From: Nibribacter ruber
GTDB lineage: Bacteria > Bacteroidota > Bacteroidia > Cytophagales > Hymenobacteraceae
Length of the DNA: 64,000 bases
NCBI RefSeq assembly: GCF_009913235.1
Contig: NZ_CP047897.1
Location: 2,065,501-2,129,500, forward strand
Direction of reading: 5' to 3'
Shown: piece by piece, positions 6,374 to 55,822 of the stretch
How the letters are laid out: the number at the start of each line of letters is the position of its first letter
Numbering within the stretch: the first letter of the stretch is position 1
The notes under the pieces: generated by a model
The model's database searches: none
What the model saw: the letters and a program-made list of their open reading frames with translations, nothing else
Told to the model about the DNA's origin: nothing
Position numbers and translations under genes: made by a program

Positions 6374-6412
6374 GCGGATACCCCCTTGAGGGGGGCGAAG
6401 GGGGGTGTTTAC
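6374..6412 (-). repeat. G/C-run dispersed repeat, copy A
   Basis: Reverse complement reads GTAAACACCCCCC, then TTCGCCCCCC, then TCAAGGGGG and ATCCGC. It matches the plus-strand segment at 55783-55822 over about 40 bp with a handful of differences, so it is a dispersed repeat; the two copies lie about 49 kb apart. Confidence 0.7.
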
Positions 6413-24945: not shown

Positions 24946-27900
24946 ATGACGCGCATAGAGGAAGAAGTACAAAAACGAATTTTAGTCTTAGACGGTGCCA
25001 TGGGCACCATGATTCAACGCTACAACCTCCAAGAAGAGGACTACCGCGGTGAGCGTTTTAAAGACCATCCCACAGATGTAAAGGGCAACAATGATTTGCT
25101 TTCCCTCACGCAGCCGCACATCATCAAAGAAATACACAGCCAGTACTTTGAGGCCGGCGCCGATATAGCGGAGACCAACACGTTCAGCGGCACCTCCATT
25201 GCCATGGCCGATTACCAGATGGAGGATTTGGTCTACGAACTCAATTTTGAATCTGCCCGCGTAGCCCGTGAAGCGGCCGATGAGTGGACCGCGAAGACCC
25301 CAGACAAACCGCGTTTTGTGGCCGGCGCCATGGGCCCTACCAACCGTACTGCCTCTCTTTCACCAGACGTAAACAACCCTGGCTACCGCGCCATCACCTT
25401 TGATGATTTAGTAGAGGCGTACACTGAGCAGATTAGAGGCTTGGTAGACGGCGGCGTAGATGTGCTATTGGTGGAAACCATCTTTGATACCTTGAATGCC
25501 AAGGCGGCTTTGTTCGCCATTGACCAATACAGCCAGCAGACGGGCAAGCGTCTGCCTATCATGGTGTCTGGTACCATCACAGATGCCAGCGGCCGTACCC
25601 TTTCTGGGCAAACGGTAGAGGCGTTTTTGTACTCGGTGTCGCACATGCCGTTATTGAGTGTGGGCTTTAATTGCGCCTTGGGCGCGAAGCAGTTGCGTCC
25701 GCACTTGCAGTCTTTGGACAAAGCGTCTAAATTCAGAATCAGTGCCTACCCGAATGCTGGTTTGCCAAACGCGTTTGGGGCCTATGATGAGACGCCTGAG
25801 CAGATGGGCGAGCACATACGGGATTATTTAGAAAACAACTTCGTGAACATTGTGGGTGGTTGTTGTGGCACTACGCCGCCGCACATCAAAGTCATTGCCC
25901 AGATTGCCCAAGAATTCTCACCGCGTCCCCTCCCGGAATTACCGGCCGTTCCCACCTACTCCGGCTTGGAACCCCTCACCGTCTTTGAAGGCTCCAACTT
26001 CGTCAACATCGGCGAACGAACCAACATCACCGGCTCCAAGCAATTCAAGCGCCTTATTGTAAACGGCCAGTATGAAGAAGCCCTGGCCATCGCCCGCGGG
26101 CAGGTAGAAAACGGTGCCCAAATCATAGACGTGAACATGGACGAAGGTCTGCTGGACTCCGAAGCCGCCATGACCACCTTCCTCAACCTTATCGCCTCAG
26201 AACCAGACATCGCCCGCGTGCCCATCATGATTGACTCCTCTAAGTGGAGCGTGATTGAAGCCGGTCTGAAGTGCGTGCAAGGAAAAGCCATTGTCAACTC
26301 CATCTCCCTCAAAGAAGGCGAAGCCCAGTTCAAGGAAATCGCTCGCAAGGTGCGCAGTTACGGGGCCGCCGTGGTGGTGATGGCTTTTGACGAAGAAGGC
26401 CAAGCCGACAACTACGAACGCCGCATACAAATCTGCCAGCGTGCTTATAACATATTAACAAAAGAAGTAGGCTTCCCGCCGCAGGACATCATCTTTGACC
26501 CGAACATCTTAACGGTGGCCACGGGCATGGAAGAGCACAACAACTACGCCGTAGACTTCATCAACGCCACCCGCTGGATTAAAGAAAACCTGCCGGGCTG
26601 TAAAGTAAGCGGCGGCGTGAGCAACATTTCTTTCTCGTTCAGGGGCAATGACCCCGTGCGCGAGGCCATGCACTCTGTGTTTTTGTACCACGCCATCAAA
26701 GCCGGTCTGGACATGGGTATTGTCAACGCGGGAATGCTGGAAGTCTACGAGCAAATCCCGAAGGATCTGCTGGAGCGCGTAGAGGATGTAATCTTGAACC
26801 GCCGTCCAGATGCCACCGAGCGCTTGGTAGATTTCGCTGAAACGGTAAAAAACAAAGGCAAAGAGATTGTCCGGGATGAGGCCTGGCGCAGTGAGCCGGT
26901 GCAGAAGCGTCTGACGCACGCGCTGGTGAAAGGCCTGGTGGAATACATTGACCAGGACGTAGAAGAAGCCCGTCACCTGTTCCAGAAGCCGCTGGAAGTG
27001 ATTGAAGGCCCGTTGATGGATGGCATGAACGTGGTGGGCGACTTGTTCCAGGAAGGAAAAATGTTTCTGCCGCAAGTGGTGAAAAGTGCGCGCGTCATGA
27101 AAAAGGCCGTGGCCTATCTGTTGCCGTTTATTGAGGAGGAGAAGGCAAGAGTGGCGGCGTTAGAGCCCCACCCCCAGCCCCTCGGCTCTCTTTTAGGCGA
27201 GCATGTTTTTAGAGCTGATCCGAAGAAGTGGGAAGCGCTTTTGAATTTTAGTCGTGATGGCCGGAAGAACCCAACCGTAGCTGAAGATATCTTATGGCCA
27301 GAGCTTAGAGGAAAGAAGCTAGAAGGTCATAAATTCAGAAGGCAACACCCCATACATGAATTTATTGCTGACTTTGTCTGCATCAGAAAGATGCTAGTCA
27401 TAGAAGTTGATGGAGAATATCATACTAAACAACAAGAATATGACGCTCTTCGCTCTGAAGTCCTTAACAGCCTAGGTTACCGGGTTCTCCGCTTCACTAA
27501 TGAAGAAATACTGCAGGAAACACCACTGGTTTTAGAAAAAATCAAGCAGACCCTTCAACTAGAACCATTATCTCCTCAAAACACACCAGCGGACACCCCC
27601 TCTCCACGGGGGAGGGGGCAGGGGAGTGGGGCCTCCCGGTTCGCCGGCAAAATCCTCCTCGCCACCGTCAAAGGCGATGTGCACGACATAGGAAAAAACA
27701 TTGTGGGCGTAGTCTTGGCCTGCAACAACTATGAAGTGATAGACCTGGGCGTGATGACCCCAATAGATAAAATCCTAGAAACTGCCCGCCAGGAGAATGT
27801 AGACGTGATTGGCCTGAGTGGTTTGATTACTCCTTCTCTGGATGAGATGGTGTCGGTGGCCAGGGAGATGGAGCGCCAGAACTTTAACGTGCCGTTACTC

Positions 27901-29091
27901 ATTGGCGGAGCCACTACTTCGCGCGCGCACACGGCCGTGAAGATTGCCCCGGCTTACAAGGGCACGGTGGTGCACGTACTGGATGCTTCGCGCAGTGTGC
28001 CAGTGGTAGGTTCTTTGCTGAGCCCCGACAACCGCGAGAAGTTTGCGCAAGACATGAAGGCGGAGTATGATGAGATGCGCGAAGGCTACCTGAGCCGCCA
28101 GAAGGAGAAAAAATACCTCACACTGCCACAGGCCCGCGCCAACAAACTGCCCATCGACTGGAAAGCCGAGGACATTTACCAACCCGCTAAAACAGGCGTG
28201 ACCGTATTCAAAGGCTTCCCACTGGAGGAGTTGGTGCCCTACATTGACTGGACGCCTTTCTTCCAGACTTGGGAGTTGCACGGCCGCTTCCCTAAACTGC
28301 TGGAAGACCCGCTCATTGGTTCAGAAGCCACCAAGCTTTTTGCAGATGCGCAGGCGTTATTGAAGCGCATTGTAGATGAGAAACTGCTTATTGCCAACGG
28401 CATTGTGGGTCTCTTTCCGGCTAACAGCATCGGGGAAGATGACATTGAAGTGTATGGCCATGAGCAACGCACCGAGGTGTTAACCACCTTCCGCTCTTTG
28501 CGTCAGCAAGGACAGAAAGGGCCGGGTGTTCCCAACTTGGCGCTGGCAGATTTTGTAGCACCCAAGGAGACTGCTTTACCTGACTACGTGGGTGGCTTTG
28601 CGGTAACCACAGGCCATGGCTTGGAGGAATTGCTTCAAGAATTCGCCGCCGACCACGACGACTACCACAGCATCATGGCCAAAGCGTTGGCAGACCGCCT
28701 GGCCGAGGCCTTCGCCGAGAAACTGCATGAGATTGTGCGCAAGGAATTGTGGGCCTATGAGCCAGAAGAAAGCCTCACCAACGAGGAACTGATTAAGGAG
28801 AAATACCAAGGCATCCGTCCGGCGCCGGGTTATCCGGCCTGCCCAGACCACACGGAGAAAACCACGCTGTTCCAGTTGCTAGACGTGGAGAAACACACCG
28901 GCATCACCTTAACCGAAAGCCTGGCCATGTACCCCACCGCAGCAGTGTCTGGCTTGTACTTCGCGCATAAGCAGTCACGGTATTTCGGGTTGGGTAAGAT
29001 TGAGAAGGACCAGGTGACAGATTATGCCCAGCGCAAAGGCATGACCGTGGAGGAAACCGAGCGCTGGTTGTCACCGAATTTGAATTACTAA
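24946..29091 (+). CDS. metH: Cobalamin-dependent methionine synthase with inserted DUF559 domain
   Basis: Transfers methyl from methyl-THF to homocysteine via cobalamin. 1381 residues against roughly 1225 for the family. Domain order: homocysteine/zinc domain ([15 protein letters not shown] and [10 protein letters not shown] supply the zinc Cys), pterin-binding domain ([17 protein letters not shown]), cap domain ending [15 protein letters not shown], an extra segment at about residues 740-897, cobalamin domain ([12 protein letters not shown], with the DxHxxG ligand), and the activation domain ([20 protein letters not shown]). All catalytic motifs are intact and the frame is open throughout, so the enzyme is probably functional. 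Controlled by the SAM-I riboswitch just upstream; metF follows. Confidence 0.96.
27163..27635 (+). mobile_element. DUF559 endonuclease-domain insertion inside metH
   Basis: A segment of about 470 bp interrupts the cap-cobalamin linker in frame. It encodes a complete DUF559 (Vsr-fold) domain: [37 protein letters not shown], and the catalytic-type [10 protein letters not shown] and [11 protein letters not shown] motifs. Both ends are G/C-run sequences in inverted orientation: GCCCCACCCCCAGCCCC at the left, and the reverse complement of the right end reads GCCCCACTCCCCTGCCCC. The insert is clearly more AT-rich than metH. There are no intein splice residues (no N-terminal Cys/Ser, no C-terminal His-Asn), so it stays in the protein as a linker domain. 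Confidence 0.8.
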
Positions 29092-55782: not shown

Positions 55783-55822
55783 GTAAACACCCCTCTACGC
55801 TCCCCTCAAGGGGAGAATCCGC
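55783..55822 (+). repeat. G/C-run dispersed repeat, copy B
   Basis: GTAAACACCCCTCTACGC, then TCCCCTCAAGGGG and ATCCGC; matches the reverse complement of 6374-6412. Confidence 0.7.

What the first reader, a model, noticed from the sequence alone, without database searches (positions are those of the whole stretch)
27163..27635. DUF559 endonuclease domain embedded in frame within methionine synthase
MetH carries a complete Vsr-fold DUF559 domain between its cap and cobalamin domains, with AT-rich composition, G/C-run inverted ends, and an unbroken reading frame on both sides. No intein residues are present, so the insert probably remains as a linker domain in a working essential-type enzyme. 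It looks like a small homing or selfish element that tolerates in-frame insertion, by analogy with Rickettsia palindromic elements inserted in genes.
Basis: partly seen in the sequence, partly recalled or inferred. Interest (0 to 1): 0.8.

Follow-up and report, generated by a model that had tools for sequence, protein, structure and literature searches.

The report
Mobile nuclease inside essential enzyme genes
A small DNA-cutting protein that looks like a mobile genetic element has settled, in frame, inside a bacterium's methionine synthase, and relatives of it sit the same way inside other enzymes, several of them essential, often between short mirror-image DNA ends.

Summary
In detail: a complete DUF559 (Vsr-like nuclease) domain lies in an unbroken frame between the cap and cobalamin domains of a Rufibacter MetH. 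It is an insertion: 13 of 16 genus genomes examined lack it, and the window's MetH is closest to an empty allele. It is one case of many. Among 80 named loci found with a probe built from embedded copies, 43 carry DUF559 internally in a longer frame; hosts include LeuRS, IleRS, ValRS, MetRS, MutS, RecG and PurL. In nine genomes the only LeuRS carries it. DUF559 genes, free or embedded, often sit between inverted palindromes: 50 of 79 loci against 0 of 290 controls; 11 of 18 plasmid loci from other phyla against 0 of 72. Free Rufibacter elements of this kind occur, palindrome to palindrome, at different places in different genomes. The fold matches homing endonuclease I-Bth0305I. Best reading: a nuclease-encoding, palindrome-ended mobile element tolerated in frame without splicing. 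Mobility is inferred; homing, nuclease activity and the mature protein are untested. The window copy's own left end is decayed.

The parts
24946..29091 (+). metH, cobalamin-dependent methionine synthase, 1381 aa with the insert
27165..27632 (+). inserted element bounded by G/C-run ends, 468 bp = 156 codons, in frame
27244..27555 (+). DUF559 (Vsr-like/EDxHD-like nuclease) domain, MetH aa 767-870
   Evidence: candidate catalytic residues invariant in 44 aligned domains
27165..27183 (+). left end, tail only (GCCCCACCCCCAGCCCCTC); inner hairpin arm decayed
   Evidence: present in sister copies
27595..27632 (+). right end: hairpin 27596-27618 followed by a tail ending GTGGGGC
26902..27120 (+). B12-binding_2 (cap) domain just upstream of the insert
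27646..27921 (+). B12-binding (cobalamin) domain just downstream of the insert
6382..6408 (+). solo copy of palindrome B, the palindrome that flanks the genome's two free DUF559 genes
55787..55813 (-). second solo copy of palindrome B

Best explanation
The insert is a copy of a small mobile element made of one nuclease gene (DUF559) between inverted, hairpin-forming palindromes. Such elements live free between genes. Where one lands in a permissive loop or linker, without stop codons and in a matching frame, it stays as an extra domain of the host protein. Nothing found suggests removal at RNA or protein level; copies that keep the frame are most simply read as translated through. Spread is most likely homing-like: the nuclease cuts a target and repair from an element-bearing copy inserts it, with the palindromes as element ends. 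Shown here by comparison: the domain, the recurrent in-frame insertion, empty sites, palindromic ends, dispersal of free relatives as units, purifying selection, and the relation to a homing endonuclease. Inferred: that DUF559 itself drives the movement, that it cuts the empty site, and that the host enzyme works with the domain in place.
For: (1) In frame and polymorphic: 3 of 16 Rufibacter genomes examined are filled; G000's host metH is closest to an empty allele (G007, 88.3% nt) and 82.0% and 81.2% to the other filled ones. In Flavobacterium, G491 is filled but its host sequence is 86-91% identical to 14 empty alleles (90% or more to five) and at most 81.2% to 12 other filled ones. The 13 filled Flavobacterium alleles measured keep the frame. 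(2) Recurrent: 43 of 80 named loci internal, 11 N-terminal, 16 C-terminal, 10 alone; hosts identified by Pfam for representatives and by clustering for the rest. (3) Of 12 genomes given, nine have an insert-bearing LeuRS that is their only LeuRS above the cut-off. (4) Inverted ends: 50 of 79 at score 18 or more against 0 of 290 offset controls (58 against 4 at score 15); 11 of 18 against 0 of 72 on plasmids, the 11 being from Cyanobacteria, Deinococcus and Alphaproteobacteria. (5) Palindrome B has 70 copies in G000 (0 in the reversed control); both free DUF559 genes lie inside inverted pairs of it, and seven further inverted pairs 126-171 bp apart lack the gene. (6) The free L003 element is absent at its syntenic site in G007 and G013; homologous elements (72-78% identical) with palindromes at both ends lie in different flanks in five other genomes. 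(7) Candidate catalytic residues are invariant in 44 aligned domains; nonsynonymous change per site is below synonymous in 12 of 13 pairs, the 13th having no change. (8) Profile match to 3r3p, I-Bth0305I (E 2.1e-6); Foldseek matches 3hrl and 3r3p at E below 0.001, and Vsr at E about 0.06.
Against: The window copy's own ends are not significant, and 29 of 79 named loci lack a strong inverted pair. The swapped-flank control is also high (159 of 394 at 18 or more), because related copies share the same kinds of palindrome. The probes for the named loci and plasmids were embedded copies, so the fraction embedded is not a population frequency. No target-site duplication was recognised. Insert divergence is clearly lower than host divergence in 3 of 13 pairs, higher in 4, and similar or saturated in 6. 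G018's metH frame is broken at the right end of its insert. In G491 no tract resembling other filled alleles extends into the host flanks. The fold model of MetH around the insert is poor (mean pLDDT 60.6).
Confidence: 0.72

Rival explanations
1. Resident accessory domain: DUF559 was fused to these proteins long ago and kept because it does something useful for the host enzyme; patchy presence reflects loss.
For: Purifying selection on the domain. Some sites are shared within a clade with decayed ends, such as RecG in Flagellimonas, Maribacter and Allomuricauda with ITR scores of 9 to 9.5. PurQ-like C-terminal and RecQ N-terminal fusions recur across Hymenobacter.
Against: Hosts are functionally unrelated (synthetases, methionine synthase, mutase, helicases, purine synthesis). 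G491 and G000 are filled alleles nested among empty ones. Free relatives with palindromic ends lie at different places in different genomes.
Confidence: 0.13
2. The palindromes are the mobile units, moved in trans by another enzyme such as a RAYT (Y1 transposase), and DUF559 is a passenger or a host factor that acts on hairpins.
For: Palindromes occur alone and in inverted pairs without the gene; G000 has three Y1_Tnp genes.
Against: Two of the three G000 Y1_Tnp genes are flanked by other inverted repeats (one of them palindrome D), and none has palindrome A or B in its ~3.2-kb locus, while both free DUF559 genes are inside palindrome B pairs. The link between DUF559 and palindromes recurs in other phyla.
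Confidence: 0.12
3. Intein-like removal: the insert is spliced out of the protein, or an intron-like RNA event removes it, so the mature enzyme is normal.
For: Inverted ends could pair in the RNA of intact copies (inference). The related homing endonucleases are intron-encoded (passages of PMC3943268); that some lie in fractured genes is recalled.
Against: No intein family in the protein. The frame is kept through both ends in the 13 Flavobacterium alleles measured and in three of the four alleles of the window's family, which RNA removal would not require. Junction linkers vary in length. Self-splicing intron models were not run.
Confidence: 0.03

Closest known systems
Rickettsia palindromic elements (RPE) and Wolbachia protein-coding palindromes
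   Same: Palindromic repeats with an open frame, inserted in frame in conserved genes and apparently tolerated (RPE: passages of PMC2229807; the Wolbachia case is only a title in its reference list).
   Different: RPEs are described there as 105-146 bp units; here the insert is 468 bp and carries a conserved nuclease domain, so the element may be autonomous.
EDxHD homing endonucleases (I-Bth0305I) and Vsr
   Same: Related by profile and fold (3r3p; weaker 1vsr, 1cw0). DUF559 has been assigned to the EDxHD family before (PMC9403480, passage).
   Different: In the passages read these enzymes are phage-encoded group I intron endonucleases; here the domain sits in frame inside ordinary proteins, or free, often between palindromes, with no intein found.
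REP/RAYT systems (REPINs, REPtrons)
   Same: High-copy hairpin repeats, inverted pairs, and a few copies of a DNA-cutting enzyme gene flanked by the repeat.
   Different: The enzyme is a PD-(D/E)XK/Vsr-like nuclease, not a Y1 HuH transposase; in G000 the Y1 genes are not flanked by this repeat.
CGTC-tagged REPs (PMC3733652)
   Same: Hairpin repeats, occurring also in Bacteroidetes and inside genes, reported there to lack a dedicated transposase (passages).
   Different: By inspection the palindromes here do not match the described CGTC tag followed by an AT-starting stem. Whether DUF559 partners true CGTC REPs was not tested.
Caulobacter VsrA (DUF559)
   Different: Reported as a protein of its own; the term 'inverted repeat' does not occur in that text.

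Membership tests
DUF559 (PF04480) | Profile score above Pfam's cut-off | tested here: met
   119.9 bits against 20.6
EDxHD/Vsr-like homing endonucleases | Homology of the catalytic domain to I-Bth0305I | tested here: met
   3r3p at E 2.1e-6 by profile; Foldseek E 4.7e-4
EDxHD/Vsr-like homing endonucleases | Encoded in an intron or intein, which is then spliced out | tested here: inconclusive
   No intein family in the protein; frame kept through the insert. Self-splicing intron models were not run, and no transcript or protein was seen
EDxHD/Vsr-like homing endonucleases | Cuts the empty allele and is copied into it | not testable with these tools
   Needs biochemistry; divergence of insert against host is mixed
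Rickettsia palindromic elements | Palindromic repeat inserted in frame in conserved genes | tested here: met
   the window copy's own palindromic pair is decayed
Rickettsia palindromic elements | Sequence relation to RPE families | not tested
   End sequences were only compared by eye with the description; no RPE sequence was aligned
REP/RAYT | Associated enzyme is a Y1 (HuH) transposase flanked by the repeat | tested here: not met
   None of the three Y1_Tnp genes of G000 has the DUF559 palindromes in its locus
REP/RAYT | Many copies of a hairpin repeat per genome, some in inverted pairs | tested here: met
   Palindrome B: 70 copies, reversed control 0. Not met for the MetH-type ends
Inteins | Hint (splicing) domain | tested here: not met
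   No intein family among Pfam matches at E 0.01 or better

The most novel reading that the evidence does not exclude
DUF559 defines a pan-bacterial class of mobile element: a lone Vsr-fold nuclease that mobilises its own hairpin palindromes, the counterpart of RAYT for a different set of REP-like repeats. Because its ends can be read through, it routinely homes in frame into linkers of essential proteins and lives there as a translated, catalytically intact domain without any splicing.
Probability: 0.5. Interest if true: 0.93.

Novelty: new variant of a known kind. Interest (0 to 1): 0.85.

Why it matters
If true, it gives a family of 'unknown function' a biological context: the enzyme of palindrome-ended mobile elements. 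It offers a candidate driver for REP-like repeats that lack a known transposase. It would show that selfish nuclease domains can persist, translated, inside single-copy essential enzymes without splicing. Filled and empty natural alleles of metH, leuS and recG are at hand, so homing and tolerance can be tested directly in harmless laboratory bacteria.

Tried and rejected
Intein removal: rejected, since no intein family is found and the frame is conserved; RNA splicing is held unlikely for the same frame argument, but intron models were not run. Pseudogene or assembly artefact: rejected for the phenomenon, because the insert recurs in many genomes and in the only LeuRS of nine of them. The G018 metH, however, is broken in a G/C run, which could be a real frameshift or a sequencing error; not resolved.

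A dispersed repeat of the MetH-type ends in the window's own genome: not found (3 matches, 3 in the control). DUF559 as partner of CGTC REPs: considered after reading passages of PMC3733652; the ends of the 18 plasmid loci do not look CGTC-type by eye, and no claim is made. Y1/RAYT as the mover of palindrome B: no flanking association in G000. Target-site duplications: none recognised. One syntenic site in G006 holds only the joined outer arms of a pair, readable as excision scar or as pre-insertion target; not resolved. The computed alignment of L003 with G007 was poor, and the absence there rests on the search and on reading both sequences.

The single-protein scan found nothing, and the 19-row alignment was not accepted. 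The MetH-context fold was too poor to use. Papers: the library holds 14 papers with 'DUF559' (passages read in three, PMC9403480, PMC12907096 and PMC6712171, the other 11 seen as listings). In searches nothing listed is, by title and start of abstract, on palindrome-flanked or in-frame DUF559. Most subscription papers are not held, and two primary papers on this endonuclease family, named from recall or from a reference list, are not held.

Full report
What is there. MetH at 24946-29091 is a single open frame of 1381 aa with the full domain order of cobalamin-dependent methionine synthase and a DUF559 domain (aa 767-870, E 5.8e-35) between the cap and cobalamin domains. No second strong MetH match appears for this genome in the rows listed, which run to about E 9e-21. 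The element bounded by G/C-run ends is 27165-27632, 468 bp or 156 codons; its core is 42.1% GC against 54.1% for the rest of the gene. In this copy the inverted ends are degraded: the pair scores 12, reached by 16 of 400 random placements in the window. In the sister copy of Rufibacter sp. XAAS-G3-1 (L198) the pair scores 29. Its contig has the same length and match position as G010's, which is how I place the window's genus as Rufibacter.

It is an insertion. Of 16 genomes of the genus examined, three are filled (G000, G001, G010) and 13 have 69 nt where the filled ones have 525-558 nt. G000's metH outside the insert is most like that of the empty G007 (88.3% nt), not of the filled G001 (82.0%) or G010 (81.2%); G010 is closest to the empty G015 and G014. 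G018, of another genus of the family, is filled at the same linker, but its frame is broken at the right end (518 nt). In Flavobacterium, 150 genomes were searched, 143 matched, and in the capped list at least 16 are filled at this linker. The 13 filled alleles that I measured keep the frame; the other three were not measured, and alleles that break the frame would rank lower in such a list. One filled allele, G491, is 86-91% identical outside the insert to the 14 empty alleles compared (90% or more to five) and at most 81.2% to the 12 other filled ones. In a phylum survey the same MetH linker is filled in eight genomes, G491 included, with various palindromes (Pfam checked for two; the rest by clustering).

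It is one of many. A set of 80 named loci, the best of 425 found with a probe made from six embedded or fused copies, has DUF559 internal to a longer stop-to-stop frame (at least 100 aa on each side) in 43, at an N-terminus in 11, at a C-terminus in 16 and alone in 10. Because of the probe these are not population frequencies. Hosts with an internal copy, identified by Pfam or NCBIfam on representatives, are MetH, LeuRS, an IleRS-type synthetase with a DUF5915 C-terminal domain, ValRS, MetRS, MutS, RecG, an AddA/RecB-like helicase, a PDDEXK_1 protein (AddB-like), PurL, methylmalonyl-CoA mutase, Type ISP restriction enzymes, a poly(A)-polymerase-type protein, a GAF protein, an M23 peptidase and an Eco57I-type methylase beside brxC. 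Terminal fusions occur with RecQ and PurQ-like proteins (that DUF5915 marks IleRS is recalled). Host-only alignments put LeuRS insertions at three or more distinct places and those of the AddA and AddB groups at two each. Of 12 genomes given to a LeuRS search, nine have an insert-bearing LeuRS and it is the only one above the family cut-off.

The ends. For 79 of the 80 named loci (one flank was too short) I scored the best inverted match between the 300 nt on each side of the domain: 50 reach 18, against 0 of 290 offset placements in the same loci; at 15 it is 58 against 4. Swapping flanks between loci also gives high scores (159 of 394 at 18 or more), because the palindromes are of shared kinds; I take the offset control as the fair one. 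Strong pairs are found in 20 of 43 internal, 8 of 11 N-terminal, 14 of 15 scored C-terminal and 8 of 10 free copies. On 18 plasmid loci (of 40 records found; chosen by hand) from Cyanobacteria, Deinococcus, Alphaproteobacteria and one Photobacterium, 11 reach 18, against 0 of 72 controls; the seven others score 8 to 17. Free copies there sit between genes of one pathway, for example between sufB and sufC or between paaD and paaZ; the latter pair lacks the insert in Deinococcus sp. QL22.

Movement of free copies. The window's genome has three DUF559 genes. The two free ones lie in inverted pairs of palindrome B, which has 70 copies in the genome and none in the reversed control, including seven further inverted pairs 126-171 bp apart without the gene. 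The L003 element is missing at its syntenic site in G007 and G013. Of eight homologous elements in other genomes that I read, five (72-78% identical) have palindromes at both ends and different flanks, and three have degraded ends. No target-site duplication was recognised. The genome's three Y1_Tnp (RAYT-like) genes are not flanked by this palindrome.

The protein. In an alignment with 43 relatives the residues T24, E27, W31, R45, R46, Q47, H48, D56, F57, E67, D69, G70, H73, R83 and seven more are invariant. The model has mean pLDDT 85.3. By profile it matches 3hrl (E 2.1e-32) and 3r3p, the catalytic domain of I-Bth0305I (E 2.1e-6). By fold the same two are the only ones below E 0.001, with Vsr at about 0.06. 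Of 13 same-site pairs, 12 have fewer nonsynonymous than synonymous changes per site and one has none at all. Insert divergence relative to host is lower in 3 pairs, higher in 4 and similar or saturated in 6. In one pair, recG of G253 and G456, identity tends to peak over the insert and its near flanks. This is compatible with separate movement of insert and host but does not prove homing.

Interpretation. The simplest account is a nuclease-encoding, palindrome-ended mobile element that is tolerated when it lands in frame in a permissive linker. The homing step, activity of the domain and the state of the mature protein are inferred or untested. Known context: DUF559 has been assigned to the EDxHD homing endonuclease family (PMC9403480, passage); a DUF559 protein of Caulobacter is reported responsible for an SOS response in methylase-deficient cells (PMC12907096, passages); in-frame palindromes are known from Rickettsia (PMC2229807, passages). 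In the library searched I saw no paper listed on palindrome-flanked or in-frame DUF559.

Noticed in passing
window 3235, 3365, 6570, 21631, 32397, 37449, 42208, 54621, 55387, 62023, 63142: Another abundant palindrome (CGTTTTTGGCCTGTTTTC...GAAAACAGGCCAAAAACG type), 11 places in the window; it also flanks one of the genome's three RAYT-like genes (L315), suggesting RAYT goes with this repeat and DUF559 with palindrome B.
   Followed up: partly
L074 (G055 metH, ORF 1955 aa): This MetH seems to carry a further ~2 kb in-frame insertion within the stretch of the activation domain (gap between matches at query aa 1169-1183); tblastn with the DUF559 probe found nothing there.
   Followed up: no
L310 (G007) and L305 (G013), intergenic: Syntenic intergenic sites of Rufibacter hold a different palindrome pair (TTCGTCCCCCTTTGAAGGGGG type) and, in G007, a frame that reads like another DUF559, as if such sites were hot spots for nested elements (by reading only).
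   Followed up: partly
L321 (Pseudanabaena galeata plasmid pPg_02): DUF559 in frame in a large Eco57I-type methylase downstream of brxC, with a strong palindromic pair: an in-frame case outside Bacteroidota.
   Followed up: partly
L277/L308 (G006), syntenic to L106: Where G000 has an inverted palindrome pair without the gene, G006 has only the two outer arms joined into one hairpin with perfectly complementary arms: excision scar or pre-insertion target.
   Followed up: partly
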